DNA of 64,000 nt from Flavicella sediminum (lineage in GTDB: Bacteria; Bacteroidota; Bacteroidia; Flavobacteriales; Flavobacteriaceae), in NCBI RefSeq assembly GCF_006381105.1, contig NZ_VDET01000008.1:248001-312000 (forward strand). The letters run 5' to 3'. Below, one piece after another: positions 13,196 through 41,376 of the stretch (the stretch's first letter is position 1; each line of letters opens with the position of its first letter). The notes beneath the pieces are model-generated. The model saw nothing but the letters and a program-made list of their open reading frames with translations, did no database searches and was not told where the DNA came from. The position numbers and the translations under genes are program-made.

Positions 13196-13230
13196 GTGAA
13201 CGGTTTTATCGTATAGTTTTTTTCGGTTCG

Positions 13231-13262
13231 TAAATATATAAAAAAAACACATTAAAATACAA
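13231..13262 (-). promoter_or_regulatory. TRAP operon promoter overlapping the operator
   Basis: On the minus strand a TTG (13262-13260) inside the palindromic operator is followed after 21 nt by TATATTTA (13238-13231), close to the TAnnTTTG -7 consensus. The dctP start is at 13195. A repressor on the operator would cover the -33 element. Confidence 0.6.
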
Positions 13263-13285
13263 TCGATTGTATTTTAATGTGTTTT
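13244..13285 (-). promoter_or_regulatory. 42-bp perfect palindrome: LacI operator for TRAP operon and terminator of the PL8 gene
   Basis: Twenty-one base arms are perfectly complementary around CG at 13264-13265. The inner 22 bp (13254-13275, core TACAATCGATTGTA) are identical to the palindrome between lacI and kduI at 46607-46628. On the minus strand the hairpin is followed by a run of eight T, so the same DNA would also end transcription of the upstream PL8 gene, whose stop is at 13315. Confidence 0.8.
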
Positions 13286-16395: not shown

Positions 16396-16463
16396 GTAAA
16401 ATTACTACGAAATAGCTAATTAATAGCGGGGGCAATTGTTCGAACAGGAGGATGAATTAAACC
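16396..16463 (-). promoter_or_regulatory. Candidate HTCS-controlled promoter of the 1012-residue PL8 gene
   Basis: On the minus strand: distal half-site AATTCATCC (within 16445-16463), proximal half-site GAACAATTGCCCCC (within 16424-16443), then after about 20 nt a -7 box TAATTTTAC (16404-16396). Same layout as six other promoters in this locus. Confidence 0.6.
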
Positions 16464-16464
16464 A

Positions 16465-16504
16465 AAAATCTCCAATAACAAGGTTTATTGCCATTGGAGA
16501 TTTT
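16465..16504 (-). terminator. Terminator after the 468-residue T9SS protein gene
   Basis: AAAATCTCCAAT and ATTGGAGATTTT pair across a 16-nt loop. On the minus strand a short T-run follows. It directly abuts the next unit's candidate regulatory site. Confidence 0.8.
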
Positions 16505-16522
16505 AAAAATAGTGAAGTGAAA

Positions 16523-17929
16523 TTAATTTACAATAACTTTTGAATTGTAAATACCTCCCGCTTCTGATTGAATAGAAACTATATAAATGCCTTTGGCATA
16601 AGATTGTACATCTATTGGATTTGTTGTGTTGCTATTGTAAATAATTTTTCCAGCAAGGTCTAAAAGTCGAACAGTTGCTATTTGCAAATCTTCATAGTTT
16701 GCAATATGAATATAATTGTTAGTTGGATTAGGGTAGATATTGATACTTTCGTTTAAAAGATCATTTTCAACAGATGCTACAGCACTATAAGCAGTCCAAC
16801 TTAGGTTGTCAAATGCTACAGAACCAGTAGAGGTATCGGCATTTCTTAATCCTATTGTAATAGCTCCAGCAATATCAATATTATCTACTTTAAAAGTGTA
16901 AGCTTCAGCACCAGAATGTGAAAGTGTTCCAGCAACTTCTCCATTAATTAATAACTCTAAATCTCTTTGCGTGGTGTTGAATAAATCAATACAAGAAACC
17001 GCAAAGGAAGCTATTCCTCCAGGGATTGTTCCAGACAATAAACCTGTTTTATCAGCGACCATATAAATTTCTTTAGAAGAGCCCATTCTTGTAGAAGTGG
17101 TTTTTCCTTCAATTGTCCATGAAAAACCATGATCACCTGTATAAGTTTCTGTTGACCAAACATTGTTTTCATCGGTATAATTTTCTAAGGTTTCGGTATA
17201 CCCATTCCAAGAATATTTTACATCTGCAATATTCCAGTTACCATTCCTGTTCTCGGTACCGCTAAATGGATTGCCATCATTGTGGTACTCATACTGAAAT
17301 GCCAAAACAAATTTGTCAGATCCAGTGGTTGCTATATAAGAGGATAAATCTATAGCTGATAAGGCCCAAGCGCCGTCGTTTCCAAAAACACCATTTATAG
17401 AAGTTATATTTGCAGTAACATCTGTCCATGTAACCGTTGAAGGATCCGTTCCGTCTGTATAGTTAAAACCAATTAAAACTTTAAAAGATTCATCATCGGC
17501 TCCTTCGTGGTACTGACTTTGGGTAGCAAAACTAGCGGTCATGTTTAGGTAGGATGATATGTCTACTGCTTGCGTAACAAGCCAGCTAATGCCTTCATAA
17601 TTTAAATTGGATTCATGTCCAGAAAGTTTTACGGATTTGGAAACTTTAGCATCTGTAAAATGCCCCTCGTTGTTAGCAGGTCTTGTATAAGTTAAATCAC
17701 TTGTTCCGGGAGCAGAGGCTTCGTCAGTAGGAATGTTTGAAGTTCTTTTAATTAGAGTAGATTCTGCAATTGATCCGGGGTTATGGGTTACAAATCCGGT
17801 GAATCCCGAATTTGTGGCAAACTGAAAGTCGTTGTATTCTATAGTGTTTTCAACCTGAGCAAATAAATTTGCTGTTAGGGAAAAGCAAGTTGAAATAAGA
17901 ATCGTTTTTAATGTAGTTATTTTTATCAT
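16523..17929 (-). CDS. T9SS-exported protein with two beta-sandwich modules
   Basis: 468 residues. After a signal peptide (TILISTCFSLTANLFAQ) comes a module (about 28-235) beginning IEYNDFQFATNSGFTGF and containing FKVLIGFNYTDG and WTDVTANI. A similar module occurs in the 499-residue neighbour and in the 1275-residue lyase. A second module (about 236-385, MVADKTGLLSGTIPGGI to VAFDNLSW) resembles anchor-type sandwiches of extracellular Bacteroidota proteins. The tail (about 395-468, INIYPNPTNNYIHI to SKVIVN) is a type A T9SS sorting domain. No catalytic motif is recognised; a secreted glycan-binding protein is plausible but unproven. Confidence 0.8.
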   Translation of the reverse strand: MIKITTLKTILISTCFSLTANLFAQVENTIEYNDFQFATNSGFTGFVTHNPGSIAESTLIKRTSNIPTDEASAPGTSDLTYTRPANNEGHFTDAKVSKSVKLSGHESNLNYEGISWLVTQAVDISSYLNMTASFATQSQYHEGADDESFKVLIGFNYTDGTDPSTVTWTDVTANITSINGVFGNDGAWALSAIDLSSYIATTGSDKFVLAFQYEYHNDGNPFSGTENRNGNWNIADVKYSWNGYTETLENYTDENNVWSTETYTGDHGFSWTIEGKTTSTRMGSSKEIYMVADKTGLLSGTIPGGIASFAVSCIDLFNTTQRDLELLINGEVAGTLSHSGAEAYTFKVDNIDIAGAITIGLRNADTSTGSVAFDNLSWTAYSAVASVENDLLNESINIYPNPTNNYIHIANYEDLQIATVRLLDLAGKIIYNSNTTNPIDVQSYAKGIYIVSIQSEAGGIYNSKVIVN

Positions 17930-17959
17930 AAGTTAAGGTTTTATAGTGATTGTATATCT

Positions 17960-18027
17960 GTAAAAGTAGTTTGAAGTCCTAAATTATAAGTGGGAATACG
18001 GGGTCGTTTAGAGGGGGTAAATTGCGC
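17960..18027 (-). promoter_or_regulatory. Candidate HTCS-controlled promoter of the 468-residue protein gene
   Basis: On the minus strand: distal half-site AATTTACCCCC (18011-18027), proximal half-site AAACGACCCCGTATTCCC (17990-18010), then a -7 box TACTTTTAC (17968-17960). Confidence 0.6.
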
Positions 18028-18046
18028 TATTGTTATATAAATAAAA

Positions 18047-18078
18047 AAATCCTTACCTATCAAAAGTGGTAAGGATTT
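18047..18078 (-). terminator. Terminator after the 499-residue T9SS protein gene
   Basis: AAATCCTTACC pairs with GGTAAGGATTT, and on the minus strand a run of seven T follows. Strong intrinsic terminator form. Confidence 0.88.
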
Positions 18079-18099
18079 AGAGTAAGATGAATAAAATTT

Positions 18100-19599
18100 T
18101 TAATTCACAACTATTTTTGTTGTAGTGCTTATCCCACTTTCTAAGGTAATATTTACCAAGTAAATTCCTTTGGTATAAGCACTTACGTCTATAGTACTTG
18201 TATCTGTTTTATGAGTGATAATTCTACCTGTCAAATCAATGAGGCTAACAGAGACTATTGCATCATTGTTGTTGTTTTGAATATGCAATAAATTGTTTGT
18301 AGGGTTCGGATACAGTATAATTGCTGTTTCGGAAGTGTTTTTATTGTTGGATAGTACAGAATCATCTACGGTAAAATCAAGCTCTTGAAGTGCCGTGAAA
18401 TTTTGACTAGCAGTCCATGCTGAACTTAATACAAAACGATAATATCTATAGGTTTGGGTTGTTGTTAAGGTAGTGGTGCGTTCATCATTAGCATTGCTTG
18501 GAACAGTTATTACTGAACTTACATTGTCCCAAGTTGAGGCATCATTACTTGCTTGTACCATCCATTGTGAATCACCTGTAGCACCTTTTGTACTTGTGGC
18601 GTTGGCTAATTTATGACGGATTTCTGTTACGAGAATAGGATTGTAAGCTGCAGAAACTTCAAAAAGATAGCCTTCATTTAAAGGAGTCTCGGTTCCATTA
18701 ACCAATCTAGGAACCGAAGTTGTTGCAGTTAGTACTTCTGCCCAAGCTCCTGTGTTTGAAAAATTGTCATTGCTGATTACAGCACTAGGTGTGTTGAAGA
18801 TATTTGTTTGCCCCGAAAAACTAGTGTTTAAAGCTGAAAAAGCGCCATTGGCTACATCCACAGGAGTGCTGTAATATCGTACATCGGAAATCCACCAAGC
18901 CCCATTTCTTATAGGTTGAATTGGGTCGTTATAATCTCCAGCATCGGTAAAAGTATATTTAAAAGCGACAACAAATTTATCAGACCCTTCATCTGCTATA
19001 TAGGATGATAAATCAATAGTCGTGTAGGCAAATGAACCATCATTACCAAAAATCTTTCCGTCATTATTGCTATCCACAATTGAAGAAGTAACATCTATCC
19101 ATGACAGTGAGCCATCATCTGGCGAGGTTCCATCAGTATAGTTTTTCGCAATTAATACTTGAAATGTATTTGTGCCTCCGCCTTCTTTAAAAGCATTTTT
19201 TGTAGCAAAAGAAACGGTCATATTATTTTGACCCGATATATCTATAGCATCTGTAACTACCCAAACCGTTCCATTTAGATTGTCGTTTCCATAATTCCCA
19301 GACATTTTAACACTAGTGGCTGTTCTTGTGCCTCCATCCGGAATTGTTGTTGCTGGTCTAGTATAGCCCAATGTTGTTTCAGAAGCAATATCTGAGGCTC
19401 CCGTTTTTCTAGTTACAAAGGCATTCCCTGAATTAGCGGTTAGGGTTTCCCCGTCGGGGTTGCTAGTGGCAAAGGCTGTGAAACCAGAGTTGGTAAAATA
19501 TTGAAAATCTTGATAATGAATCACGTTTTGCGCTGAAGTCATAAACGAAGTGATACACAACGTTAGCAACAAAATTGTTTTAAAGGTATTTTTTTTCAT
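18100..19599 (-). CDS. T9SS-exported protein with anchor-like module and discoidin-like domain
   Basis: 499 residues. Signal peptide (LLLTLCITSFMTSAQ), then a module (about 25-240) beginning IHYQDFQYFTNSGFTAF and containing FQVLIAKNYTDG and WIDVTSSI, clearly related to the 468-residue neighbour. Residues about 290-410 look like an F5/8 type C (discoidin) domain (LVTEIRHKLAN, WMVQASNDASTWDNVSS, YRYYRFVLSSAW), a fold that often binds glycans. The C-terminal 70 residues (IILYPNPTNNLLHIQ to TTKIVVN) are a T9SS sorting domain. No enzyme motif is seen. Likely a secreted or surface glycan-binding protein. Confidence 0.8.
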   Translation of the reverse strand: MKKNTFKTILLLTLCITSFMTSAQNVIHYQDFQYFTNSGFTAFATSNPDGETLTANSGNAFVTRKTGASDIASETTLGYTRPATTIPDGGTRTATSVKMSGNYGNDNLNGTVWVVTDAIDISGQNNMTVSFATKNAFKEGGGTNTFQVLIAKNYTDGTSPDDGSLSWIDVTSSIVDSNNDGKIFGNDGSFAYTTIDLSSYIADEGSDKFVVAFKYTFTDAGDYNDPIQPIRNGAWWISDVRYYSTPVDVANGAFSALNTSFSGQTNIFNTPSAVISNDNFSNTGAWAEVLTATTSVPRLVNGTETPLNEGYLFEVSAAYNPILVTEIRHKLANATSTKGATGDSQWMVQASNDASTWDNVSSVITVPSNANDERTTTLTTTQTYRYYRFVLSSAWTASQNFTALQELDFTVDDSVLSNNKNTSETAIILYPNPTNNLLHIQNNNNDAIVSVSLIDLTGRIITHKTDTSTIDVSAYTKGIYLVNITLESGISTTTKIVVN

Positions 19600-19633
19600 A
19601 ATAAAAAGTTTTAATTTATGTGGTTAATATGAA

Positions 19634-19701
19634 GTAAAACTAGATAGATATTTTATTGAATATGTGGGGGTAGTTGCTCTAGAGAGATGGGTAAATTGAC
19701 C
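19634..19701 (-). promoter_or_regulatory. Candidate HTCS-controlled promoter of the 499-residue protein gene
   Basis: On the minus strand: distal half-site AATTTACCC (19684-19701), proximal half-site GAGCAACTACCCCC (19662-19681), then a -7 box TAGTTTTAC (19642-19634), identical to the -7 box of the 1275-residue lyase gene. Confidence 0.62.
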
Positions 19702-19734
19702 GGAATTCCATTTTAAATAAGAAATTTTTGATTT

Positions 19735-22700
19735 TTATTGAATGCTGATTTTTTTGATTATTGTGGAGTGGGTATTTGTTTCAAGCCTTAAGAAATAGAT
19801 GCCTTTGGCGAATTCATGAACCGGAAATTCTCGTCCGTTTTTTTGTGTTTTTAAAACGCTTCCATGGAGGTCGACTAGACTAATCTTGTTTATTTTAAAA
19901 GCAGGGTTCGAATTTTGAATGTGTAGATTTTTTTTAACTGGATTAGGATAAATAATTACATCGTTTTCTAAAATAAATTCTTGTGAAGAGAGACTTGAAT
20001 TTGAAGTGAAATAATTGACATCTGAAATGTAAAAAGTTCCATTTCTTGAATTTAAAGAATAGGTCCCATTGGATCCTGTGTATTTAAATGCCAAAGTGAA
20101 AGTTGTACTGGAATAGTTTGAAATATCTAAGGTAGATTTTAAATAAGTTAAATTATTGGCATCGTCGTTTTTGGCTATCTGACTGAGTTGATGGGTTACA
20201 TTAGTCCAAGTGGCTGTACTTACATCCTCTGTATAATCTGTAGAAATTAAAACCTCCAAAGAAGAAGTTCCTCCATTGGCGTATCTAGATTCTGTCCAGA
20301 AAGTCACGTATTTATAGGTGTCGTCTTTACTTATATAAGGATTGGTACTCGATAAGTTTATGGTGGTCATAGGAATCCATACCTCCAAGCCATAATTTTG
20401 CCCATTCGTGGCGCCTACAATTGAAATGGCTTTTTGCTCTCTAAGGCTGTTGTTAGGAATTCTGTTATTAGGTCTTGTCTCAGTAAATGCTCCGTTAGAA
20501 TCTGTCGCATCCACGATGTCTGAAATAACTTTGCCAAGATTAGAAATACTTTGTCCATTTGTATTGGAAACAATTTGTACATCATATCCACGTTGGCCGG
20601 TGTTGTATCTGAAATCTTCATAATAAAACGAAGGGTAAAAAGGATTGTAAACGCCTGAGAAAAGTTCAACATCTATCGGAAGTCCGTCTTTTACTTCAAG
20701 GCTTAAAATTGTTTCGTTGTCTCCTGCGGTTATTTGCACATTTCCTCCTGAACTATTTTGCAAACTCCAATTACCATTTAATACAAGTGTTATTGTTTGG
20801 GCTTGACTTACACCAAAATTATCTGCAAAGTTGAGGTCTGGATTAACAACGGAAAGATTTAAATTATTTCCACTTTTTTCTGTCATGACCAAACAAGGTT
20901 TGTCATTTGATTTTAGAGGGGACGTGTTTCCGTAATTTCCATTTGAAAATAAAACATAGCCATGCCTGTTGTTGTATTTTACAATATGTGCCGTTTCATT
21001 TTGTTGCAGTACTTTATAGAATTCGGTGTTTGAATCTTGCATGGAATTTTGGAAAGTTTCCATTTCAGATTCAGTTGTTTGTGGAAGAATGACAAATTCA
21101 TAAGTGGCGTCTGTGGGTTGTTTCCCATGACTGATATAGGCTGAAGCAAAATTTCCATTAGTAAATCCACCTTTGCCATTTTCATTTGGTGAAGTTTGAT
21201 TTTTTCTGTTAATAACCAACTCAGAACCGCTTTTTATAAAATAGCCTGTTTGGTAGGCATCAATTATCCATTGGTCGTTCTCATTGTTTAATGTTGTGTT
21301 GTAAGGAAATGTACTAAGATTGGCATTGTTTAACGTAATTGGTGTTGAAGTGCTATTGAGTTTGTTTTGAAATAAATTTGTAGCAGTAGTATTAGAATTA
21401 TCATTATTATTGATATTTGATCCCAAACAAATTAATTTTCCATCAAAGCAGAAAACAGATTTCTTAAAGGCGAAAGATGTGTTATGGGTAGCAGAAATAT
21501 TTTTTTGTTGAAAATCCATCCCAAACAAGCCGTAGTTTCCTTCTAATTTTTCATCAACATAATACTTGTTTTTTGATCCAAAACGCAGACTCGCGGCAAA
21601 GTTGGCATCTGTTTTCTCATCTTGTCGGCTCGATTTTGCTTCTAAGTCATTCCAATCTAAATGAATACTTGTCGTTCCAGGTGCCTTATTCCAGTCCCAA
21701 CCATTGATGTTGAATCCTGAATTTGAATGCCCTCCAGGATACATGATTTCTACAGCTCCGTAACTTTGATAACGACCAAAGCGGTTGTCTGAATTGTATA
21801 TTTCGGTTCCCCAAAAATATTTATTAAATCCTTTTAGGGTAGCCAACCAATTTTCTTGACGATACACACCAAGATTCGAGAAATTCACTTGCCAAAATCC
21901 TGTAGGTAAGGTTTCAGCTGCATAGGAATTTGTCTGATTATCTCCGCCGGTTATATAATTATAGGCTCCCAATAATTGTTCGTCAACAGGCCGAATTAAC
22001 CCCAAATTTTTATAAGCACGGGTAATGGAAATTGCATTTAAAGGAGATCTACCTGATAACGAATTAGCAAAATTGTCGTCCGACATTAATACTCTAGCAA
22101 TAGAAAGGATTTTTTTGAAAATTGTTCTTTTTTCACTAGAAATACCATACGTATCACTGGCAATATAATTGACTGCTTGCGACAAGCTTTTGTAAGAACC
22201 GAAAGCATATTGCGGGTAATACACATTGTGATGAAAACCTGTATAATCTATTTTGATTCCGTTACTTTCTTTTGCATAGGGGGTAAGCCAAGTTTCAGCA
22301 TAATTTCTAAAACCTTTTAAATATCTTACCTTTTCGATGTCTGTTGTTTGATACAAACAGGCTCCTAAAATAGGTAAGGATCTAGTTAAGGCATCATCCA
22401 TATTGCTTTTATGGGCCGTAGGGTGCCAAATAACATCGACTGCTGCATACCATTCTACCATTTTCTGAGCTTCATTCCAAAGACCAGCAGTTTCCAATTC
22501 AGTTTTCATTAGGTGAACAGCTTTGGCAACATTTCTAAATCGATACCCTATGTGATGAATGGTTTCTACCAAACTTCCTTCAGCATAACCTTGATCTAAT
22601 AAATAGCGAACAGTATTTAAAAAGTAGGTCAAGCTGCTTGCTGTGTTTTTATGTTTGTAGTCTCTGGCTAATACATGAATAAAATCATCTACAACTGCAA

Positions 22701-23562
22701 TTGAGTTGGCATCCGAGTAATCTGTTCCGTATAAGGGTTTTCCGCTTGAAATTCCATTTTCAAATTTTATTTTCTGGGTGTTATATGCCGCTATCGCATT
22801 GGTCAATGCTGAATTTCCAGGGGCATTACTTCGTATATAAGCATCGTATAAATCTTTTATCTCCGACAAGTCATTTAACTCTTTATTTGTTGGAGTAGAA
22901 GCAGTAACTGTTTTAGGTAAAGATTGAAAATAAACGATATCTCCCCAGTGCTCTTCGTTGTTTGCATTGATAAAAGTCAATTGATAATCAGGAGAGCGAG
23001 ACGTATTTCTGTCCATCGTATAATCTATATAATCAAAATAGAAGGTCCCACTTCCAGTAGCAGGTGCCTTGATTTTTAGCGTTGTAATATTGTCAGATTT
23101 TTTATTTCCAGACATTTCGCTTTTGTAACTAGCCGAAGCAGCTCGCCAACCTGTAAAATTAAGGTGTACATTGTAGTGAAATTGTTTAACATTGGTGTTG
23201 TCGTAGAACTCTATTTCTAAATCTTGGTTAGTTAATGCTGAAGTATTATAGACCCACATTCTAAACATATTATGGTAGTAACCCACAACTTCTTCTTTGA
23301 CCAGTCCATGATTTTGTAGATCATTTACGGTTAAAACATCTCCAGCATTCCATTCCCATTTCAGTGATTTTTCGCCTAATTTGTAATGCAAGTTAGAAGT
23401 ACTTAAACTTCCTAAAGTAGTATTCCAGTTGTTTGGAACGCTTGCGCTTTCAAAGGATTGATCTTGGGCATAACTACTAAAAGTAGCTGTTAGAATATTT
23501 AGTAGAAATAAAAATAGAAATCTTGAAGGATATTTTTGTATCGTTTTCTGTTGTTGTAACAT
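19735..23562 (-). CDS. Chondroitinase ABC-type PL8 lyase with extra module and T9SS tail
   Basis: 1275 residues. Signal peptide (FLFLLNILTATFSSYAQ), N-terminal sandwich, PL8 toroid and sandwich domains to about 960. A module at about 975-1175 (FYYEDFRYNTGQRGY, LEVLISTDYTED, WTNVTHQLS) is related to those in the 468- and 499-residue neighbours. A T9SS sorting tail (VIIYPNPVKKNLHIQ) ends the protein. The catalytic set is present: His445 and Tyr452 in HHNVYYPQYAFG, Arg505 in SGRSPLN and Glu587 in GTEIYNSDNR. The tail predicts surface-attached or secreted action, as the first cut on polymer outside the cell. The extra module is probably a substrate-binding accessory. Confidence 0.92.
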   Translation of the reverse strand: MLQQQKTIQKYPSRFLFLFLLNILTATFSSYAQDQSFESASVPNNWNTTLGSLSTSNLHYKLGEKSLKWEWNAGDVLTVNDLQNHGLVKEEVVGYYHNMFRMWVYNTSALTNQDLEIEFYDNTNVKQFHYNVHLNFTGWRAASASYKSEMSGNKKSDNITTLKIKAPATGSGTFYFDYIDYTMDRNTSRSPDYQLTFINANNEEHWGDIVYFQSLPKTVTASTPTNKELNDLSEIKDLYDAYIRSNAPGNSALTNAIAAYNTQKIKFENGISSGKPLYGTDYSDANSIAVVDDFIHVLARDYKHKNTASSLTYFLNTVRYLLDQGYAEGSLVETIHHIGYRFRNVAKAVHLMKTELETAGLWNEAQKMVEWYAAVDVIWHPTAHKSNMDDALTRSLPILGACLYQTTDIEKVRYLKGFRNYAETWLTPYAKESNGIKIDYTGFHHNVYYPQYAFGSYKSLSQAVNYIASDTYGISSEKRTIFKKILSIARVLMSDDNFANSLSGRSPLNAISITRAYKNLGLIRPVDEQLLGAYNYITGGDNQTNSYAAETLPTGFWQVNFSNLGVYRQENWLATLKGFNKYFWGTEIYNSDNRFGRYQSYGAVEIMYPGGHSNSGFNINGWDWNKAPGTTSIHLDWNDLEAKSSRQDEKTDANFAASLRFGSKNKYYVDEKLEGNYGLFGMDFQQKNISATHNTSFAFKKSVFCFDGKLICLGSNINNNDNSNTTATNLFQNKLNSTSTPITLNNANLSTFPYNTTLNNENDQWIIDAYQTGYFIKSGSELVINRKNQTSPNENGKGGFTNGNFASAYISHGKQPTDATYEFVILPQTTESEMETFQNSMQDSNTEFYKVLQQNETAHIVKYNNRHGYVLFSNGNYGNTSPLKSNDKPCLVMTEKSGNNLNLSVVNPDLNFADNFGVSQAQTITLVLNGNWSLQNSSGGNVQITAGDNETILSLEVKDGLPIDVELFSGVYNPFYPSFYYEDFRYNTGQRGYDVQIVSNTNGQSISNLGKVISDIVDATDSNGAFTETRPNNRIPNNSLREQKAISIVGATNGQNYGLEVWIPMTTINLSSTNPYISKDDTYKYVTFWTESRYANGGTSSLEVLISTDYTEDVSTATWTNVTHQLSQIAKNDDANNLTYLKSTLDISNYSSTTFTLAFKYTGSNGTYSLNSRNGTFYISDVNYFTSNSSLSSQEFILENDVIIYPNPVKKNLHIQNSNPAFKINKISLVDLHGSVLKTQKNGREFPVHEFAKGIYFLRLETNTHSTIIKKISIQ

Positions 23563-23592
23563 TTTATTAGTTTTAAGTCAATAATGGTTTAG

Positions 23593-23658
23593 GTAAAACT
23601 AATTTTTTATAGAGGAGAATAGAGGGGGGATGTCGTTCTGAAAGGAGGGTTAAATTCG
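23593..23658 (-). promoter_or_regulatory. Candidate HTCS-controlled promoter of the 1275-residue PL8 gene
   Basis: On the minus strand: distal half-site AATTTAACCC (23641-23658), proximal half-site GAACGACATCCCCCC (23621-23640), then a -7 box TAGTTTTAC (23601-23593). Confidence 0.62.
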
Positions 23659-23686
23659 TCTGTTTCTTTAGTGTAGCTACTGTAAT

Positions 23687-23728
23687 AAAAAGACCTTGGG
23701 GGATTTTTTTACTTTTCAAGGTCTTTTT
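23687..23728 (-). terminator. Terminator after the 559-residue beta-helix gene
   Basis: AAAAAGACCTT and AAGGTCTTTTT pair across a 20-nt loop, with T-runs on both strands. It ends the GH88-to-beta-helix unit. Confidence 0.82.
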
Positions 23729-23745
23729 TTAGGAAGACAAGAGTA

Positions 23746-25425: not shown

Positions 25426-25458
25426 AGCGCTTACATATGTTTTATTTGAAATACAGAA

Positions 25459-25490
25459 GACCTGACCATATGTTAAGTATGTGTCAGGTC
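25459..25490 (-). terminator. Weak hairpin after the 523-residue sulfatase gene
   Basis: GACCTGAC and GTCAGGTC pair across a 16-nt loop. The minus strand lacks a good T-run afterwards, so this may be an attenuator or an mRNA-processing stem rather than a full terminator. Confidence 0.35.
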
Positions 25491-25520
25491 AATTGAAAAA
25501 GATTAAAAATAGTAGTAATT

Positions 25521-27092: not shown

Positions 27093-27137
27093 TTTTTATA
27101 GAAAGAATAATTGGCGTAAATGTTCGATATTAGTTTG

Positions 27138-27740: not shown

Positions 27741-27762
27741 TAGGTAGATTGTTTAGAATTAA

Positions 27763-29310: not shown

Positions 29311-29320
29311 TTTTTAAGTT

Positions 29321-30529: not shown

Positions 30530-30603
30530 AATATATAGATGATTTTGCAATAAGGATTTTTGTCGTTTTTTCTAAGTGCAATTTCTATTAAATTTGGTGT
30601 TTT

Positions 30604-30645
30604 AAAGGGGGGCTACTACGTTTTAGATGGGGGGTAAAACGTGTG
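30604..30645 (-). promoter_or_regulatory. Candidate HTCS site upstream of the GH88 unit
   Basis: On the minus strand: distal half-site GTTTTACCCCCC (30626-30645) and proximal half-site AAACGTAGTAGCCCCCC (30604-30625), 22 nt apart in register. The -7 box is less clear than in the other units; TAATAGAAATTG near 30580-30590 is the best candidate. Confidence 0.55.
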
Positions 30646-30721
30646 TTAAATTTGATTTAGTAGTTGTAATCCTTATGAATACAAGGGTTTAAGATAGTTG
30701 ATGCTGAAAAGTGTCTAAACT

Positions 30722-30759
30722 AAAAAAGTCATCTTGTAATTTGTTAAGATGACTTTTTT
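30722..30759 (-). terminator. Terminator after the DUF6250-like gene
   Basis: AAAAAAGTCATCTT and AAGATGACTTTTTT pair across a 10-nt loop with T-runs on both sides. It separates the sulfatase-DUF6250 unit from the GH88 unit. Confidence 0.9.
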
Positions 30760-30788
30760 AGAAGAAATAAAGAACTATGAAAACCGTT

Positions 30789-31460: not shown

Positions 31461-31481
31461 AGATTCGTTTTTTAAAGTGAT

Positions 31482-32927: not shown

Positions 32928-33007
32928 TGTATATTCATTTAGTGAACAATTTCTTCTTCTGTAGAAGAATGAAATCGAATTGTTTTTTTGATTTGTTGTT
33001 GTAAATT

Positions 33008-33037
33008 AAAGCCTCTTACAAATGAGTAAGAGGCTTT
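33008..33037 (-). terminator. Terminator or attenuator after susD
   Basis: AAAGCCTCTTAC and GTAAGAGGCTTT pair across a 6-nt loop. On the minus strand only a short T-run follows, so partial read-through into the sulfatase gene is plausible. Confidence 0.75.
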
Positions 33038-33065
33038 CGTTGTGTTTAGAAAAATAAAGAGATGT

Positions 33066-34799: not shown

Positions 34800-34832
34800 G
34801 GTATGTGTTTTAGTTTTAAAGACGATCATTCA

Positions 34833-37800
34833 TTAGAAAGTAATTTCAACTCCCGTCATTAATGTTGTGCTTTGTGGGTATGCTGAGTAATCTAAGTTTG
34901 GGGTTAAGGCTCCAAATTTACCTACAGAAACATCTGGGTCGTATCCAGAATACTTGGTCCAAGTAAATAGATTGTTTCCTGTAAAATGGAACCGTAGCCT
35001 TTGGATATTTAGTTTTTCAGAAATATTTGAAGGGACAGTATAACCAACGGTAAATGATTTGAATTTTAGGTAAGAGCCATCTTCAACAGAACGATTGTCA
35101 ATTTGGTTTCCTTTTGGCGGTGCTCCATAAATAGATAAATAACGTACGGTACTAACATCCGTATCTGTATTTGTTGGTGACCATGCGTTAGCTAAAGAAG
35201 CAAACCCGTTAGATCGTTGTGCAGAAGGTACTCCGAAAACGGCATTGTTTGTATTCAAAATATCAAATCCATAGGACCATTGTAATAAAAATTGAAGATC
35301 TATATTTCCAATTTGAAAACTATTGTTCAATCCTCCAAAATGTTTTGGGTGTGGATTTCCAATGACAACTCTGTCGTCCGAATTAATCGTTCCATTATTA
35401 TCTTGGTCAATAAATTTAACACTTCCAGGTCCTACAGGTAAGGTTCCATTATCAGGAATTCCTTCATTTAATTGATAAGCTTGAAGTCCATTATCCCAAT
35501 AAAAATCATCCCATTGGTAAATGCCATCAAATTGCAAACCGTACATCATTCCAACAGGCTCTCCTACTTTGGTTATGTATTGGTATTCAGGATAGCTTCC
35601 GCTCCATTCAGGGTCTGTATAAATAGCATCTTGACCATCGTTTAAAGCAATTGTTGTGTTTTTATTAAATGAAATATTGAAAGCAGTGGTCCATTTAAAT
35701 CGATCTTTTTGGATGTTTGTGCTGTTGATGGTTAATTCAAAACCTTCATTTTCTACTTTTCCAATGTTTTGTTGTACTTTATCAAAACCGGTATGTAAAG
35801 CCATTTCTGCTTTTAATAACAGGTCACTCGTATTCTTTTTGTAATAGTCGGCAGTTACTTCTATTTTTTGGTTGAATAAAGCAAGGTCTAAGCCCACGTT
35901 TGTTTGCGCAGTAGTTTCCCATCTTAAATCAGGAACTCCTAAATTACTTTGGTATGCACCAGGAATGTAATTTTGTCCAACTCCCCAAACATATCCGCTA
36001 GAAGTACTGGCATTTAGTTGGCTAAAGGCGTCGTAATCTCCAACGCGATTGTTTCCTGTTTTCCCCCAACCAATACGAAGTTTGGCAAAACTTATGGCAT
36101 CTATATCCATCATAAAATCTTCGTCGCTTATTTTCCATGCTCCAGAGAAAGAAGGGAAATAGCCCCAGCGATTTTCTGGTTTGAATTTTGAAGAACCATC
36201 GGCTCTATAAGTAGCCGTTAGTAAATATTTATTTTTAAACGCATAATTAGCTCTTGCAAAGAAAGAAGCCAAAGTATTGCCCGAAATTAACGTTTCAGGA
36301 ATAGAAGGTGAGGTACCAAAACCAAGCTTCGCAATTCCAAAAATGTCTGTAGGGATTTCAGAGTTTTTCATACGGGCATATTCATAGTCTCTTTTTTGAG
36401 CTTCAAATCCCCCTAAAAAGGTTAGGTTGTTTTTTCCGAATTTCTTTTTATAGGTTAAGGTGTTTGAGGTAGACAATGTTTGGTAACGTCTCATGGTTAA
36501 GGTTCCGTTTATATGATCGGTTCCTCGGGTTCCCTGCTGTGTTTCTTGTCCGTAAAAAACAGATTCTTTTCTCGTGTCTACTTGGTAAGTACCAGAGGTT
36601 TTAAAGTACAAATTAGGTTTGAATTTATGCGTCATCGAAACACTACCACGGATCACATCTGAGATACTTTGTCTGTCTGTATTTTCTAAACTTTTTACAG
36701 GATTGAATAAATAACGTTGATTGATTTCATCAGGATCGTATCCTCCAGGTTCTAAGCCATCGTCAATAATTGGTTCAACAGGTCTAAATTGTAAGGCATC
36801 TCTAATAATACTGGTGTATTTATTTCCTGAAATATTTATTCCAGATTTTTTAAGGTGAGAATATTGCATGTATCCATTGAAGTTAGTTTTAGAGCTCAAT
36901 CGATGAGAGAATTTAAGGTTGTTCAATACTTTTTTAAATCCTGTGTTTAACAGCGTACCCTCTTGGTCTAAATATTCCGTAGAAAAATATAAGGTACTTG
37001 TTTTGTTACCACCACTTAAACTAGCGGTATGTCTTGTGGTTGAAGCCAATCTAAAAATAGCATCTTGCCAGCTCGTTCCTTCTGAATTTTTGTATAGTTC
37101 AGCATCTACCCATTGTTTCTTGAAAAATCGGGTATAGTCACCTGGAGTATAATTGTCTAAAGCCGTGGCAATATTTTGTTGGTACTTTACATATTCATAC
37201 GGACTTAAAACTTCCAGTCTGTTAGGAATCCACTGCATGCTGTAAGCAGAGCTCACTTTTACATCCGTTTTACCATCGCTTCTACCTTGTTTGGTGGTAA
37301 TTATAATAACTCCATTGGCAGCCCTAGATCCATAAATAGCGGTAGCCGAGGCATCCTTTAAAATATCAAAGCTTTCAATATCACTAGTACTAATGCTGGC
37401 GGGGTCAAAATCTTCCAAAGGAATTCCGTCTACCACATACAAAGGAGAGTTGTCACCTGTAATAGAGTTACCACCACGAATTACAATTTTCAAACTTTCT
37501 CCAGGAGTACCATCTACAGAAGAAACTTGTACGCCTGTAACACGTCCTGCAATGGCTTGGTCAAAGTTTGTGGTGGCTGTTTTGGCTAAGTCATCAGCAT
37601 TAATAGTTGCTACAGATCCGGTTAAGTCTTTTTTCTTTACCGTTCCATAACCTACAACAACAACTTCTTCTAAGCCAACGCTAGACTGGCTCATAACAAG
37701 ATCAATGTTGGTTTTTCCTTCTACATAGACTTCTTGTGTTTCGTATCCTAAATAGCTAAAAATTAAAACAGCATTGTTTTTTATTTTTGGAAAGGAATAC

Positions 37801-37967
37801 AAGCCATCAAAATCTGAAGTTGTTCCTTTAGCCAGTCCTTTTATTAAAATGGTGACCCCAGGTAGTGGTTCTCCGCTACTATCGGTTACTTTTCCGTTGA
37901 CACTAATTTGTGAAAATCCAGAAAAAGAGCAGCTTATGAGTATGATAAGTAAAATTATTTTTTTCAT
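34833..37967 (-). CDS. susC: SusC/RagA TonB-dependent outer-membrane transporter
   Basis: 1044 residues from the ATG at 37967, where a signal peptide (LLIILISCSFSGFSQ) begins. The ATG at 38027 would overlap the upstream gene and bury the signal. A carboxypeptidase-like domain (VNGKVTDSSGEPLPGVTILI) is followed by the SusC box EEVVVVGYGTVKKKDLTGSV, the plug (GSRAANGVIIITTKQG) and a long TonB barrel ending in an aromatic-type strand (MTGVEITF). It imports the large oligosaccharides captured by SusD and the surface binding protein. It is the middle gene of a three-gene unit. Confidence 0.96.
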   Translation of the reverse strand: MKKIILLIILISCSFSGFSQISVNGKVTDSSGEPLPGVTILIKGLAKGTTSDFDGLYSFPKIKNNAVLIFSYLGYETQEVYVEGKTNIDLVMSQSSVGLEEVVVVGYGTVKKKDLTGSVATINADDLAKTATTNFDQAIAGRVTGVQVSSVDGTPGESLKIVIRGGNSITGDNSPLYVVDGIPLEDFDPASISTSDIESFDILKDASATAIYGSRAANGVIIITTKQGRSDGKTDVKVSSAYSMQWIPNRLEVLSPYEYVKYQQNIATALDNYTPGDYTRFFKKQWVDAELYKNSEGTSWQDAIFRLASTTRHTASLSGGNKTSTLYFSTEYLDQEGTLLNTGFKKVLNNLKFSHRLSSKTNFNGYMQYSHLKKSGINISGNKYTSIIRDALQFRPVEPIIDDGLEPGGYDPDEINQRYLFNPVKSLENTDRQSISDVIRGSVSMTHKFKPNLYFKTSGTYQVDTRKESVFYGQETQQGTRGTDHINGTLTMRRYQTLSTSNTLTYKKKFGKNNLTFLGGFEAQKRDYEYARMKNSEIPTDIFGIAKLGFGTSPSIPETLISGNTLASFFARANYAFKNKYLLTATYRADGSSKFKPENRWGYFPSFSGAWKISDEDFMMDIDAISFAKLRIGWGKTGNNRVGDYDAFSQLNASTSSGYVWGVGQNYIPGAYQSNLGVPDLRWETTAQTNVGLDLALFNQKIEVTADYYKKNTSDLLLKAEMALHTGFDKVQQNIGKVENEGFELTINSTNIQKDRFKWTTAFNISFNKNTTIALNDGQDAIYTDPEWSGSYPEYQYITKVGEPVGMMYGLQFDGIYQWDDFYWDNGLQAYQLNEGIPDNGTLPVGPGSVKFIDQDNNGTINSDDRVVIGNPHPKHFGGLNNSFQIGNIDLQFLLQWSYGFDILNTNNAVFGVPSAQRSNGFASLANAWSPTNTDTDVSTVRYLSIYGAPPKGNQIDNRSVEDGSYLKFKSFTVGYTVPSNISEKLNIQRLRFHFTGNNLFTWTKYSGYDPDVSVGKFGALTPNLDYSAYPQSTTLMTGVEITF

Positions 37968-37998
37968 TTGTTTGTGTGTTTTTGTAAATGACATGGAT

Positions 37999-39546
37999 TT
38001 ATTCTTCAGAAGCTTTGAAATGTACATCTGAGATATAGTATCTTCCTAATCGGCTTCCACCTACACCTTTTACGCCAGTTGGGTATTCAGCCTTAGTAAA
38101 ATTACAAGCGATTTTAAACTTTAAGGCAAAGCTTTTTACGTCTTTGTATTCATTTAAGTTCATTTCGCAACGTACCCATTTTGCATCTGCATTTTTTGAA
38201 GTGTCTTGCCCAAAATTGGCCATTCCTGCTTTTAATTTTTGATCACCCGGATAAGGAGTTCCAATAATAGTGGGAGCATCTAAGCTATTAATTTGACAAC
38301 TTAGTTGGTCGTTTACTTTGGTCCACGTAGAGCTAGCATCATCACCTGTATAGTCTGTAGAAATATAAATTTCTAATTCTGTTGGTGCAATTCCAGAAGG
38401 CATGTATTCAACATATTGATTTTTAATGTAAAAGACCGTTGCTAAATTATAACCCAATCTATAACGCGTTAAATCTTGAGGGTTGATGGTTACATAGGAT
38501 TCATGAAGTTCTTGTGTTCCGGCTGTTGGATTTGTGAAGATAGATTTGATACCTGTAACATCTGAAGGTCGCTCTGCAGCCGCAATATTTGCTGGGCCAG
38601 ATTGGATCCAAACTTTGTCTGCGGTGATACTTCCTAGATCTATAATTTCTTTAGTGTAACCGTACAGTTTATTTTCTGCCTGAAAAGTAGGATAGAAAAA
38701 GTAATTGGTTTTTTTAGGCAAAACTACTGGAGTGTTGGAAGCAACTAACATTAAAAATCCTTCTCCATTAAATTCTGTAGTTTCTCCACTAATGGTACTA
38801 GTGATTTGTACATTTGGGTAAATGGTGTCGTTTTCAGTTGTCGTGTATCCATCCTTAAGACTGATGACTCCTGTTTCTGAGTTGATACCTAGTTTGTCAG
38901 TATCGCTTGTCAATGCAAAAGTAACGGCAGGATTGCCTGTAATTAAATAAGGTTTGGATGTTTTAGCTCCTGTATTTGCAACCAGGTTTTGTGCTAAAGG
39001 CGAATACAATAAAGTACTGACTAATTGTGGTCCAACCCCTAGGTGAAATACATCCTCAAAAACAGTACTATGACTTATTTCGTTGATAGTGGTAGTTACT
39101 TTTACGGTAAAGTAGTAGTTTCCGATTCCGAATTTGTTTTCGTCGGCAATTTGGATGATACCACTGTTTTTAGTTTCCCAACCTTCTGTTTGTGTGATGA
39201 GCTCTCCATTTAGTTCATATTGGTCTTCAATAGCCAAATCCTTTGTTATTAACACAGGATTGCTGATGCTAACGGCATCCATATAAGAGGCATCTAGTAT
39301 AGTTCCATCTTCTGATCTTCCTGAGATAATTTCGAAGTTAGGAATAAGTCCGTCAGTATCTAAAACTGGTGTTCCTGTTTTTACAGCTGCATATTCCCGA
39401 ACATTTGTTACTTCTGCATAAAGAAGACTATTTGGAGCTTTGTAGTCAGCGGAGCTTGTGTTGGAAATAAACGTTTCTTTGTCGCAACTTGCAAAAATGA
39501 GCAAGAAGCCAAAAACGAATTTCCATAAATAGATAGTTTTTTTCAT
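37999..39546 (-). CDS. Surface glycan-binding lipoprotein upstream of susC
   Basis: 515 residues. Lipoprotein signal (FVFGFLLIFASCDKE). A cadherin-like or Ig-like stretch (about 30-280, including YYFTVKVTTTINEIS and INSETGVISLKDG) precedes a C-terminal sandwich (about 290-515) with IYISTDYTGDDASSTWTKVN and RYYISDVHFKAS. The latter resembles the ISTDYTED/NYTDG-WTDVT module of the T9SS proteins in this locus. Its position directly before susC fits a surface glycan-binding protein (DUF4958/SGBP-like). It is the first gene of the SGBP-susC-susD unit, with a candidate HTCS site 66 nt upstream. Confidence 0.75.
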   Translation of the reverse strand: MKKTIYLWKFVFGFLLIFASCDKETFISNTSSADYKAPNSLLYAEVTNVREYAAVKTGTPVLDTDGLIPNFEIISGRSEDGTILDASYMDAVSISNPVLITKDLAIEDQYELNGELITQTEGWETKNSGIIQIADENKFGIGNYYFTVKVTTTINEISHSTVFEDVFHLGVGPQLVSTLLYSPLAQNLVANTGAKTSKPYLITGNPAVTFALTSDTDKLGINSETGVISLKDGYTTTENDTIYPNVQITSTISGETTEFNGEGFLMLVASNTPVVLPKKTNYFFYPTFQAENKLYGYTKEIIDLGSITADKVWIQSGPANIAAAERPSDVTGIKSIFTNPTAGTQELHESYVTINPQDLTRYRLGYNLATVFYIKNQYVEYMPSGIAPTELEIYISTDYTGDDASSTWTKVNDQLSCQINSLDAPTIIGTPYPGDQKLKAGMANFGQDTSKNADAKWVRCEMNLNEYKDVKSFALKFKIACNFTKAEYPTGVKGVGGSRLGRYYISDVHFKASEE

Positions 39547-39591
39547 AATTAGTAAAAGTTGTTTATAATGGTTTTTTAACAGGATAAATGT

Positions 39592-39652
39592 CTAAAATAA
39601 CTTTGGTTGTAGGGCGGTGTATATTGCTCTATACAGCGGGGGAAATTGTTCT
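39592..39652 (-). promoter_or_regulatory. Candidate HTCS-controlled promoter of the SGBP-susC-susD unit
   Basis: On the minus strand: distal half-site AATTTCCCCC (39634-39652), proximal half-site GAGCAATATACACCGCCC (39612-39631), then a -7 candidate TATTTTAG (39599-39592). Confidence 0.6.
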
Positions 39653-39679
39653 GATTCTATTTGGCTAGCCCCATGTTTT

Positions 39680-39710
39680 AAGGGGGAGAAGGGAAATTAA
39701 AAATCCCCCT
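39680..39710 (-). terminator. Possible terminator after the 505-residue sulfatase gene
   Basis: AGGGGGA and TCCCCCT pair across a 17-nt loop between the sulfatase stop (39767) and the next promoter. The T-run is poor, so confidence is low. Confidence 0.4.
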
Positions 39711-39766
39711 CTCTAATTCTGAATAGGAAAAGTGGCAGCATATAGAGCATCTAGTTTTGTGTGAGA

Positions 39767-41284
39767 TTATTTTATTGCTTTTTTATATTCTTGAATTAGC
39801 TCCTTTAGTTTATCTGGATATACGCTTGCTAAATTAGTTTTTTGGCCAATATCATTGCTAATATCATAAAGTTGGTATTTGGTTGAATTTCCCAATTCTA
39901 TTTTCACCATTTTGTTTACAGCTTCTCCGTCATTTGGTGGAATCATAATCCAGTTGTTTTTTCTAAAGGCGGTATATTGCATGGCTTCAATGACAAGATG
40001 CTCTCTTCCTATTGCGGATTTTCCGAGGAAGGTGTTCAGCAATTCTTTACTATCAGAAACGTTAGTATTGCTGCCAACAAGTTTGGCCAATGAAGATAAT
40101 AAATCAATTTGACAAACCAATGCATCTGAAACGGCTGGTTTTATAGTTCCCTTCCAATAAGTGAAAAATGGAACATGTGTACCTGCGTCAAACAAACTAT
40201 ATTTTCCACCTCTAAATTGAGCAAACGGATTGTGACTGCCTAGTTTTTCTTCGGCATCATCATAATAGCCATCATTTAAAACAGGGCCATTATCGCTAGA
40301 AAAAACAATCAATGTATTTTCTAATAAGTTTTCATTTTCTAATGTTTTTATAAATTCTCCAATACACCAATCCGCTTCTAAAATGACATCACCTCTTGAT
40401 CCTAAACCCGATTTTCCAACAAATCGTGGATGAGGCGTTCTGGGTACATGCGGTTGTTGCATCGCATAGTATAAAAAGAAAGGTTTGTCTTTGTTTTTTT
40501 TTACATAGTCTTGGGCTTTTTGTAAAAAATGATCCGCCATATCTTCATCAATCCATTTGGCTTTTTCTCCGCCATTCATAAACCCTATTCGAGGAATTCC
40601 GTTAACAATACTATTGTAATGCCCGTCATACCATTTCATTTTTAACAATTCAGGGTTGTCGAGTCCAGTTGGTTGACCAGGAAAGTTGTTTTGATAATCT
40701 ATTTCAATAGGATCATTGGGATCTATGTTTACTACATGCCCGTTTTTTATGTATACGGTGGGTACTCTGTCTTGAGTTGCCGCCATGATATAAGATTCAT
40801 CAAAACCAACCTGATTGGGGCCGGGAGTAATTTCTTCATTCCAATTTACATTTCCTGCTCCCAAACCTAGGTGCCATTTGCCAACAATTCCAGTATGGTA
40901 TCCTTTTTCTTTTAACATTTTAGGAATGGTTGCTTGATTTGTACCAATTATTAAGGGCGCAGTTCCTGGTAATATTTTAGCTTCTTTTTCTCTCCAAGGA
41001 TATCTACCCGTTAGTAAGGCATACCGGCTAGGCGTGCATGTAGAAGAGCTTGCGTAACCATTTGTAAAGCGCAAACCGTTGTTGGCTAATTTGTTTAAGT
41101 TGGGAGTTTTAATTTGACTTGGGCCGTTAAACCCGACATCACCGTAGCCTAGATCGTCGGTATAGATGAAAACGATATTTGGTAGTTTTTTCTTTATCGC
41201 AGTTGGTGATTCTTTTTTATTCTCTGTACACTGTATTAAAACAGTACAAGAAAAAAACGCAATTAATAGTATTTTTAATTTCAT
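39767..41284 (-). CDS. Formylglycine-dependent sulfatase (CTPSR motif), arylsulfatase-like
   Basis: 505 residues, type I sulfatase. Lipoprotein-like signal (IAFFSCTVLIQCTEN). NIVFIYTDDLGYGDVGFNG carries the two metal aspartates. SSTCTPSRYALLTGRYPWR has Cys83 as the formylglycine position; GKWHLGLG and VFSSDNGPVLNDGYYDD follow. The DDLGYGDVG/GRYPWR style is that of arylsulfatase A/N-acetylgalactosamine-sulfatase-like enzymes, consistent with a GalNAc sulfate substrate, though not proof. It forms its own unit between the HTCS gene and the SusCD unit. Confidence 0.9.
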   Translation of the reverse strand: MKLKILLIAFFSCTVLIQCTENKKESPTAIKKKLPNIVFIYTDDLGYGDVGFNGPSQIKTPNLNKLANNGLRFTNGYASSSTCTPSRYALLTGRYPWREKEAKILPGTAPLIIGTNQATIPKMLKEKGYHTGIVGKWHLGLGAGNVNWNEEITPGPNQVGFDESYIMAATQDRVPTVYIKNGHVVNIDPNDPIEIDYQNNFPGQPTGLDNPELLKMKWYDGHYNSIVNGIPRIGFMNGGEKAKWIDEDMADHFLQKAQDYVKKNKDKPFFLYYAMQQPHVPRTPHPRFVGKSGLGSRGDVILEADWCIGEFIKTLENENLLENTLIVFSSDNGPVLNDGYYDDAEEKLGSHNPFAQFRGGKYSLFDAGTHVPFFTYWKGTIKPAVSDALVCQIDLLSSLAKLVGSNTNVSDSKELLNTFLGKSAIGREHLVIEAMQYTAFRKNNWIMIPPNDGEAVNKMVKIELGNSTKYQLYDISNDIGQKTNLASVYPDKLKELIQEYKKAIK

Positions 41285-41309
41285 GATAAAGTAACGTATT
41301 GGTTATTAG

Positions 41310-41376
41310 GTAAAATTATACCATACGCATTCATGACAAAGGGGACACAACGTTCCTTTTCATGGGGTATATCGTG
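41310..41376 (-). promoter_or_regulatory. Candidate HTCS-controlled promoter of the 505-residue sulfatase gene
   Basis: On the minus strand: distal half-site CGATATACCCC (41361-41376), proximal half-site GAACGTTGTGTCCCC (41335-41356), then a -7 box TAATTTTAC (41318-41310). Confidence 0.6.

What the first reader, a model, noticed from the sequence alone, without database searches (positions are those of the whole stretch)
16396..41376. Seven promoters of one locus share a double C-rich operator plus TAnTTTTAC -7 box: candidate HTCS regulon
Seen directly: upstream of seven transcription units (starts 41284, 39546, 30529, 23562, 19599, 17929, 16353) the transcribed strand carries a distal half-site (AATTTACCC or CGnTnTACCC) and a proximal half-site (GAACRnnnnCCCC-like). 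The two C-tracts are about 20-23 bp apart. About 20 bp further comes a -7 box, TAATTTTAC, TACTTTTAC or TAGTTTTAC in five of the seven. Distance from the proximal C-tract to the start codon is about 57-78 nt in every case. Tandem half-sites two helical turns apart are what AraC-type HTCS output domains bind, and the HTCS gene is adjacent. It would be activation at many internal promoters rather than at susC alone.
Basis: partly seen in the sequence, partly recalled or inferred. Interest (0 to 1): 0.85.

Follow-up and report, generated by a model that had tools for sequence, protein, structure and literature searches.

The report
Shared switch for chondroitin-digestion genes
Seven start points of a bacterial gene cluster for digesting chondroitin sulfate carry the same paired DNA tag, very probably where the cluster's own sugar sensor binds to switch them on; the type of switch is known, but this one is newly mapped, is kept in related bacteria, and may be gated by a second, repressor-type switch.

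Summary
A paired half-site (roughly GAACAATTACCCCC twice, 21-23 bp apart) precedes all seven named starts. A model built only from relatives' promoters ranks the seven sites 1-4 and 6-8 in the 4.58-Mb genome; rank 5 lies beside another HTCS gene. All 24 loci with an orthologous HTCS carry at least one site, 0 of 4 control HTCS loci do; in the 24 loci, 43 of 81 upstream regions of homologous genes have it against 1 of 145 others. In two congeners a sulfatase gene at an unlinked place keeps the site. A -7 box sits at a fixed distance in about half the sites. Best explanation: operators of the adjacent HTCS. Such regulons, including the chondroitin one of B. thetaiotaomicron, were predicted in 2013: new member of a known kind. 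Corrections: the -7 box is not exclusive to these sites, and two internal gene starts lack the site. Extra: LacI shares the HTCS operon, and its presumed operator lies before LacI-HTCS, kduI and the TRAP transporter, suggesting a two-tier circuit. No binding was tested.

The parts
41309..41376 (-). paired operator and -7 box TAATTTTAC, promoter of sulfA (41284)
   Evidence: genome rank 7 with R2
39584..39651 (-). paired operator, weak -7 box, promoter of hyp515-susC-susD (39546)
   Evidence: genome rank 1 with R2
30577..30643 (-). paired operator, TTGC-type -7 box, promoter of the GH88 unit (30529)
   Evidence: genome rank 4 with R2
23593..23660 (-). paired operator and -7 box TAGTTTTAC, promoter of PL8a (23562)
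   Evidence: genome rank 3 with R2
19634..19700 (-). paired operator and -7 box TAGTTTTAC, promoter of a T9SS protein (19599)
   Evidence: genome rank 6 with R2
17958..18026 (-). paired operator (poor proximal half) and -7 box TACTTTTAC, promoter of a T9SS protein (17929)
   Evidence: genome rank 2 with R2
16396..16463 (-). paired operator (poor distal half) and -7 box TAATTTTAC, promoter of PL8b (16353)
   Evidence: genome rank 8 with R2
41397..45494 (-). HTCS: Reg_prop sensor, Y_Y_Y, HisKA, HATPase, REC, AraC-type HTH_18; presumed activator of the seven promoters
   Evidence: Pfam; conserved relay residues and SHIP motif
45498..46514 (-). LacI-family regulator, 3 bp upstream of the HTCS, presumably one operon
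   Evidence: Pfam, ORF coordinates
46607..46628 (.). 22-bp perfect palindrome AAAATACAATCGATTGTATTTT between LacI-HTCS and divergent kduI: presumed LacI operator
   Evidence: its 16-bp core exact in nine fetched flanks of relatives and in Arenibacter nanhaiticus
13254..13275 (.). second copy of the palindrome, upstream of the TRAP transporter genes dctPQM

Best explanation
The seven paired sites are operators of the adjacent hybrid two-component regulator (HTCS). When its periplasmic propeller domain senses an oligosaccharide from chondroitin or dermatan sulfate, the protein passes phosphate to its own receiver domain, and the AraC-type DNA-binding domains of a dimer bind the two half-sites in tandem, about two helical turns apart on one DNA face. 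The proximal C-tract lies near where a -33 element would be, and TAnnTTT follows 26-29 nt later in about half the sites, so the bound activator most likely helps the housekeeping RNA polymerase onto a promoter with a weak or missing -33 contact. The seven promoters, serving sulfatases, SusCD, GH88, PL8 lyases and T9SS proteins, would be switched on together. Shown here: sequence, spacing, rarity in the genome, conservation, co-occurrence with the HTCS. Inferred: binding, ligand, activation, contact with polymerase, operon extents.
For: Model R2, from 29 relatives' promoters and no window sequence, finds the seven sites at ranks 1-4 and 6-8 of the genome. 24 of 24 loci with a full-length HTCS match of 40-61% identity have at least one upstream region scoring 14 or more, 0 of 4 loci with 35-37% HTCS; 43 of 81 upstream regions of homologues of window genes against 1 of 145 other upstream regions in those loci, Fisher p 1.7e-22; letter-shuffled regions at most 0.34%. 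Two or more R1 sites at E 0.001: 12 of 21 family genomes with the orthologue, 0 of 278 others (cross-tabulated by hand; 11 of the 12 gave training sites). sulfA homologues 71-72% identical at unlinked places in G237 and G002 have the site upstream. TAnnTTT begins 26-29 nt from the proximal C position in 20 of 44 relatives' sites, which were chosen without regard to it, and in at most 4 in any other 4-nt stretch. Spacing agrees with the 21-bp mean of 16 predicted HTCS motifs (PMC3878776, section read). The only other strong own-genome site (C12:856374) lies beside an HTCS paralogue whose HTH_18 segment reads NDVKYFR where this one has NDLKYFR.
Against: No binding, expression or transcription-start data. 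No site before sulfB and the pectate-lyase-like gene. The distal half at 16353 and the proximal half at 17929 are poor. Of nine off-locus R1 hits fetched from relatives only three precede a glycosaminoglycan-type gene, one is inside a gene and five are unclear or unlinked. Of eight orthologue genomes that gave no training sites two had an R1 hit at E 0.001, one of them (G248) far from its HTCS; four genomes without the orthologue have one hit each. The relatives' sites were first found with the window matrix. Another own paralogue (L007) also has KYFR in that segment, and only 11 own paralogues were compared.
Confidence: 0.87

Rival explanations
1. The sites are operators of another factor: the LacI protein, a Crp-like or SusR-like protein, or an ECF sigma factor.
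For: A LacI gene lies directly before the HTCS, so in the window its presence cannot be told from that of the HTCS.
Against: A conserved palindrome is the better candidate for LacI. The paired site is a direct repeat at 21-23 bp, unlike the 67 or 77 bp of SusR-like motifs (PMC3878776). Seven of the eight best genome sites lie in one locus, which does not suit a global regulator. In several loci with sites, for example those of G180, G162 and G134, no LacI homologue was found in the 7-10 kb fetched on the far side of the HTCS or the 20 kb on the near side; LacI elsewhere in those genomes was not sought.
Confidence: 0.06
2. The C-tracts are C-rich promoter or leader elements without a dedicated regulator, spread by duplication of promoters within the locus.
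For: The locus holds paralogous genes (two PL8, two T9SS proteins), so promoter duplication is possible.
Against: Non-homologous genes (sulfatase, GH88, SusC unit) share the sites; half-sites and spacing recur in other genera; upstream regions of other genes in the same loci lack them (1 of 145).
Confidence: 0.05
3. Chance pattern-picking in an AT-rich sequence with a few C-runs.
Against: Genome ranking with a model free of window sequence, leave-one-out in the window, shuffles and the Fisher test.
Confidence: 0.01

Closest known systems
HTCS_Hya / BT3334 chondroitin-hyaluronan regulon of Bacteroides thetaiotaomicron
   Same: HTCS with a chondroitin/hyaluronan PUL holding PL8 lyases, GH88, SusCD and sulfatases; its motif class is a direct repeat averaging 21 bp; the PUL is co-regulated with unlinked sulfatase and lyase genes (PMC3878776 section and passages; PMC6994673 passages).
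   Different: Another group of Bacteroidota; the BT3334 operator letters were not available for comparison; here T9SS-tagged proteins, a LacI gene before the HTCS and a TRAP transporter are added.
HTCS_Man, HTCS_Rgu and other predicted HTCS motifs (PMC3878776)
   Same: Direct repeats of 12-16 bp half-sites with 5-9 bp spacers.
   Different: Other regulators, glycans and host genus; their letters were not compared.
SusR-like regulons
   Same: Direct repeats before PUL operons.
   Different: 67 or 77 bp between sites and another protein family (PMC3878776).
LacI-family uronate regulators KdgR, UxuR, UxaR, UxmR of Bacteroides
   Same: LacI family, linked to uronate catabolism (PMC3878776, Table 2 seen in passages).
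   Different: There they are placed over monosaccharide pathways; here the presumed operator also lies before an HTCS gene.

Membership tests
HTCS (hybrid two-component system) | periplasmic Reg_prop/Y_Y_Y sensor, HisKA, HATPase, REC and AraC-type HTH in one chain | tested here: met
HTCS (hybrid two-component system) | relay residues and the SHIP part of the S/CHIP-DK motif (PMC11253607); the DK part was not checked | tested here: met
   H845, D1156, S1178, H1179, P1181 invariant and I1180 at least 90% in 16 orthologues; which H and D accept phosphate is recalled
HTCS regulon with direct-repeat operators | two similar half-sites about 21 bp apart upstream of PUL operons | tested here: met
   21-23 bp
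HTCS regulon with direct-repeat operators | kept with the orthologous HTCS, absent with other HTCS | tested here: met
   24 of 24 against 0 of 4 loci; exceptions told in the report
HTCS regulon with direct-repeat operators | the HTCS output domain binds the sites | not testable with these tools
   needs gel shift or footprinting
Bacteroidota housekeeping promoter (TAnnTTTG at -7, TTTG at -33) | -7 element at a fixed place | tested here: met
   TAnnTTT at offset 26-29 in 25 of 51 sites, 20 of 44 without the window; followed by AC 14, AT 6, GG 3, GA 2, so mostly not the canonical G
Bacteroidota housekeeping promoter (TAnnTTTG at -7, TTTG at -33) | -33 TTTG element | tested here: inconclusive
   TTG at offsets 8-11 in 7 of 51 and 4-7 in 4 of 51 sites, TTTG in 2 and 2; no clear peak
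LacI-family repressor circuit | palindromic operator with central CG near its own gene | tested here: met
LacI-family repressor circuit | repression and effector | not testable with these tools
   not measured

The most novel reading that the evidence does not exclude
The locus is run by a conserved two-tier circuit: a LacI repressor, relieved by an intracellular uronate catabolite, gates its own operon, which includes the HTCS, together with the divergent kduI-SDR genes and the TRAP transporter; only then can the HTCS, sensing oligosaccharide in the periplasm, fire its seven promoters. Two glycan signals, one on each side of the inner membrane, would be combined. In two relatives (G180, G162) the operator stands 0.2-0.3 kb before the HTCS gene with no LacI gene between, as expected if control of the HTCS itself is what is kept.
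Probability: 0.6. Interest if true: 0.55.

Novelty: new member of a known kind. Interest (0 to 1): 0.45.

Why it matters
It gives a testable operator for a chondroitin-locus HTCS outside Bacteroides, with a fixed geometry to the promoter and a model that already points to unlinked regulon genes. The LacI-type operator before the HTCS gene makes it testable whether a PUL sensor is itself under metabolite control, on which the papers found in my searches gave nothing.

Tried and rejected
A -7 box exclusive to the regulon: rejected, kduI and DctP, without paired sites, have TACTTTTAC and TATATTTAC; but in the window the AC ending is otherwise confined to the locus. E. coli sigma-70 type promoters: no excess over shuffles (63 against a mean of 61.7). 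An eighth site in the window: none clear; apart from hits overlapping the seven, the next score 14.9 or less, all those listed being inside genes except one at 59181 with 12.7. Paired sites before the HTCS or LacI gene: none (7.5 and 6.5). A terminator that would force a promoter at sulfB: the 12-pair stem at 33008-33037 is listed only for the + strand; its - strand copy has too few T to be listed, and terminator-like sites are not in excess (10 against 12.5). Wider phylum: 3 of 394 other genomes have one R1 hit at E 0.001; I listed ORFs there and went no further. In the 80 named loci, R1 hits below E 0.01 lie in three: Arenibacter nanhaiticus (two, before genes of SusC and PL8 size that I did not identify), Xanthocytophaga flavus (one, before a gene) and Pedobacter segetis (one, not before a gene on its strand). 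The BT3334 promoters were not among the fetched loci, so its motif was not compared. Structure prediction was not used.

Selections. Controls: four of many loci with 35-37% HTCS. In that call only the two best first-look candidates of a genome were scored, so 'no orthologue' means none among those; partial matches of 42-44% over kinase and output domains only were not counted as orthologues. The own-paralogue control (29 upstream regions) is weak, as those loci hold about 1.5 kb of flank. Of the 51 sites, 37 were listed for modelling; one (L079 sulfB) was left out of A1, so R1 has 36 and R2 the 29 that are not of the window. Nine off-locus hits were fetched; further weak ones were not. Pfam was run on genes behind six of the nine.
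Full report
Setting. The window is G000:C76:248001-312000 of a 4.58-Mb genome from an unnamed source; that it is a member of the Flavobacteriaceae is my inference from T9SS tails and from the nearest named relative, Arenibacter nanhaiticus. The - strand from 46.5 to 10.4 kb is a chondroitin/dermatan-type utilisation locus: LacI, HTCS, sulfA, a 515-aa protein, SusC, SusD, sulfB, DUF6250, GH88, a BT3328-family relative, CBM96, sulfC, a pectate-lyase-like protein, PL8a with T9SS tail, two T9SS proteins, PL8b, TRAP transporter. Among solved structures sulfA's second-best match is a GalNAc-6-O-sulfatase (6s20, E 1.3e-159, behind an entry called arylsulfatase A), sulfB's second-best a 2-O GAG sulfatase (5g2t), sulfC's best an endo-4-O-sulfatase (6s21). 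On the + strand kduI, an SDR dehydrogenase (best model gluconate 5-dehydrogenase; KduD below cut-off) and a BT3233-family protein follow divergently.

The observation. All seven sites are as described. Alignment of the halves gave one shared 14-bp matrix, roughly GAACAATTACCCCC, strongest in its last five positions, with 21-23 bp between halves. The full matrix puts the seven first in the window, 20.1 to 29.2; the next hit not overlapping them has 14.9, inside susC. With each site held out in turn, nothing else in the window reaches it for six of seven; for 16353 three places do by a hair.

More than chance. R2 was built from 29 promoters of relatives and none of the window. In the own genome it returns the seven window sites at ranks 1, 2, 3, 4, 6, 7 and 8 (E 1.2e-4 to 0.041); the next hits have E 0.156. 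Rank 5, C12:856374-856436, lies just after an HTCS paralogue (C12:856460 onward) and before an ORF with planctomycete-type cytochrome domains. R1, which includes the window sites, has the seven at ranks 1-7. The relatives' sites had been found with the window matrix, so the two are not wholly independent; but that the genome holds such sequences almost only here was not built in. In both searches a first look chose candidates and 150 were scored.

Conservation. From the 299 family genomes I took the 24 loci with a full-length HTCS match of 40-61% and four at 35-37% as controls, and fetched up to 20 kb on the PUL side and 10 kb on the other. Upstream regions (gap of at least 100 bp, C position 45-130 nt before ATG) scoring 14 or more: 12 of 51, 18 of 75 and 14 of 100 in three orthologue groups; 0 of 33 in controls and 0 of 29 around own paralogues; letter-shuffled regions 0 to 0.34%. 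Each of the 24 loci has at least one, none of the four controls; before homologues of window genes 43 of 81, before all other genes 1 of 145. Over the 299 genomes R1 has hits at E 0.001 in 15 of 21 orthologue genomes and 4 of 278 others, two or more in 12 of 21 and 0 of 278 (by hand). Thirteen of the 15, and 11 of the 12, gave training sites. Of the eight orthologue genomes without training sites two had hits: G246 (two of three near its HTCS) and G248 (far from its HTCS). Of the four others, the hit in G117 lies just after another HTCS gene; the rest were not followed.

A natural experiment. In congeners G237 and G002 the gene after the HTCS is not sulfA, and no sulfA homologue was found in the fetched parts of their loci. 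R1 finds off-locus sites there, and the genes behind two of them are sulfatases 70.8% and 71.7% identical to window sulfA; a third in G002 precedes a T9SS protein related to the BT3328 family. Of six further off-locus hits fetched, one is inside a gene and the others precede genes without evident link or not identified (nucleotidyl transferase, an ORF before a sodium:solute symporter, DUF4625, two not searched). B. thetaiotaomicron too co-regulates unlinked sulfatase and lyase genes with its chondroitin locus (PMC6994673, passages).

Promoter geometry. TAnnTTT starts 26-29 nt after the proximal C position in 25 of 51 sites, 20 of 44 without the window; no other 4-nt stretch exceeds 4; TTT starts at 31 or 32 in 32 of 51. 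The two bases after it are AC 14, AT 6, GG 3, GA 2 times. The consensus TAnnTTTG at -7 and TTTG near -33, the latter not identified in Flavobacterium johnsoniae, is from PMC7366714 (passages). Whether a -33 element is missing here is open: TTG lies at offsets 8-11 in 7 and 4-7 in 4 of 51 sites. That the activator makes up for a weak -33 contact is inference. GH88 promoters use another box (AACTTGCA-like) in the window and several relatives at about the same place. In the window TAnnTTTAC is found before five of the seven units, before kduI, and once inside coding sequence before susC, while genes outside the locus show TAnnTTTG; DctP has TATATTTAC before its likely true start. So the AC-ending box marks promoters of this locus under both regulators rather than HTCS sites alone.

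The protein. The relay residues and SHIP are kept in 16 orthologues; SHIP marks the majority, phosphorylation-gated class in Bacteroides (PMC11253607, passages). A solved entry covers REC plus DBD of another HTCS (12aw). Orthologue DBDs, 20 of the 24 compared, are 55-80% identical; the segment GFNDLKYFR is kept with small changes. Of 11 own paralogues compared, the one beside the rank-5 site has GYNDVKYFR and one other GFSDPKYFR.

A second layer. LacI lies 3 bp before the HTCS. The palindrome AAAATACAATCGATTGTATTTT stands at 13254-13275 and 46607-46628, its core ACAATCGATTGT nowhere else in the genome. Two matches to the 16-mer with up to three mismatches are not unusual in such a window (18 of 100 shuffles), but both are exact. 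The exact 16-mer is in 26 of 299 family genomes: 12 of 20 with HTCS of 43% or more, 14 of 279 others, Fisher p 9.8e-10. In nine of the 12 it lies within 1.4 kb of the HTCS, in two about 9-11 kb away near a LacI homologue, in one (G121) elsewhere. In G180 and G162 it is 0.2-0.3 kb upstream of the HTCS with no LacI between. In G237 the copy before DctP reads ATGCAATCGATTGCAT, changed on both arms so that the palindrome holds. The two-tier proposal rests on position and conservation only.

What is known. PMC3878776 (section on HTCS regulons and passages) predicted direct-repeat motifs for 16 HTCS, average distance 21 bp, including HTCS_Hya (BT3334) for chondroitin/hyaluronan, in 11 Bacteroides genomes. 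BT3334 as chondroitin sensor and the susC promoter it serves are used in reporters (PMC9845299, passages). PMC12125979 (passages) concerns other regulators. I found no paper on an operator motif of a flavobacterial HTCS or on a LacI operator before an HTCS gene in eight full-text searches, which cover open-licence papers only.

Verdict. Confirmed observation, interpretation supported with corrections, new member of a known kind; interest 0.45.

Noticed in passing
window 46607-46628 and 13254-13275: Identical 22-bp palindrome between LacI-HTCS and kduI and before the TRAP transporter; core found nowhere else in the genome; its 16-mer recurs near LacI/HTCS in relatives.
   Followed up: yes
G000:C12:856374-856436 (L176, L123): Paired site ranked eighth (R1) or fifth (R2) between an HTCS paralogue and an ORF with PSCyt1/PSD cytochrome domains, with DUF1552 and PQQ-like genes further on: an HTCS with an unusual possible target.
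   Followed up: partly
window 13195-13252: The listed DctP start (13252) is probably too early; alignment to the G237 homologue suggests a start about 57 nt downstream, which puts the palindrome in the promoter.
   Followed up: partly
window 33008-33037, 32927 and 25425: A 12-pair stem lies between susD and sulfB (listed as terminator-like on the + strand only), and sulfB and the pectate-lyase-like gene have no paired site; how they are transcribed is open.
   Followed up: no
window 30577-30643 and GH88 promoters in L060, L064, L066, L070: GH88 promoters share an odd -7 box (AACTTGCA or similar) instead of TAnTTTTAC.
   Followed up: no
window promoters of the locus: -7 boxes ending in AC are found in the window only at promoters of this locus (both HTCS and palindrome ones) and once within coding sequence; genes outside show TAnnTTTG.
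   Followed up: partly
L186 6681-9853, PL8a residues 978-1184: T9SS proteins of the G237 locus share a segment with the C-terminal part of window PL8a (42-44% identity).
   Followed up: no
L237, L241, L256: Contigs labelled Rickettsiales, Calditrichia and Williamsia carry HTCS genes; perhaps misbinned MAG contigs.
   Followed up: no
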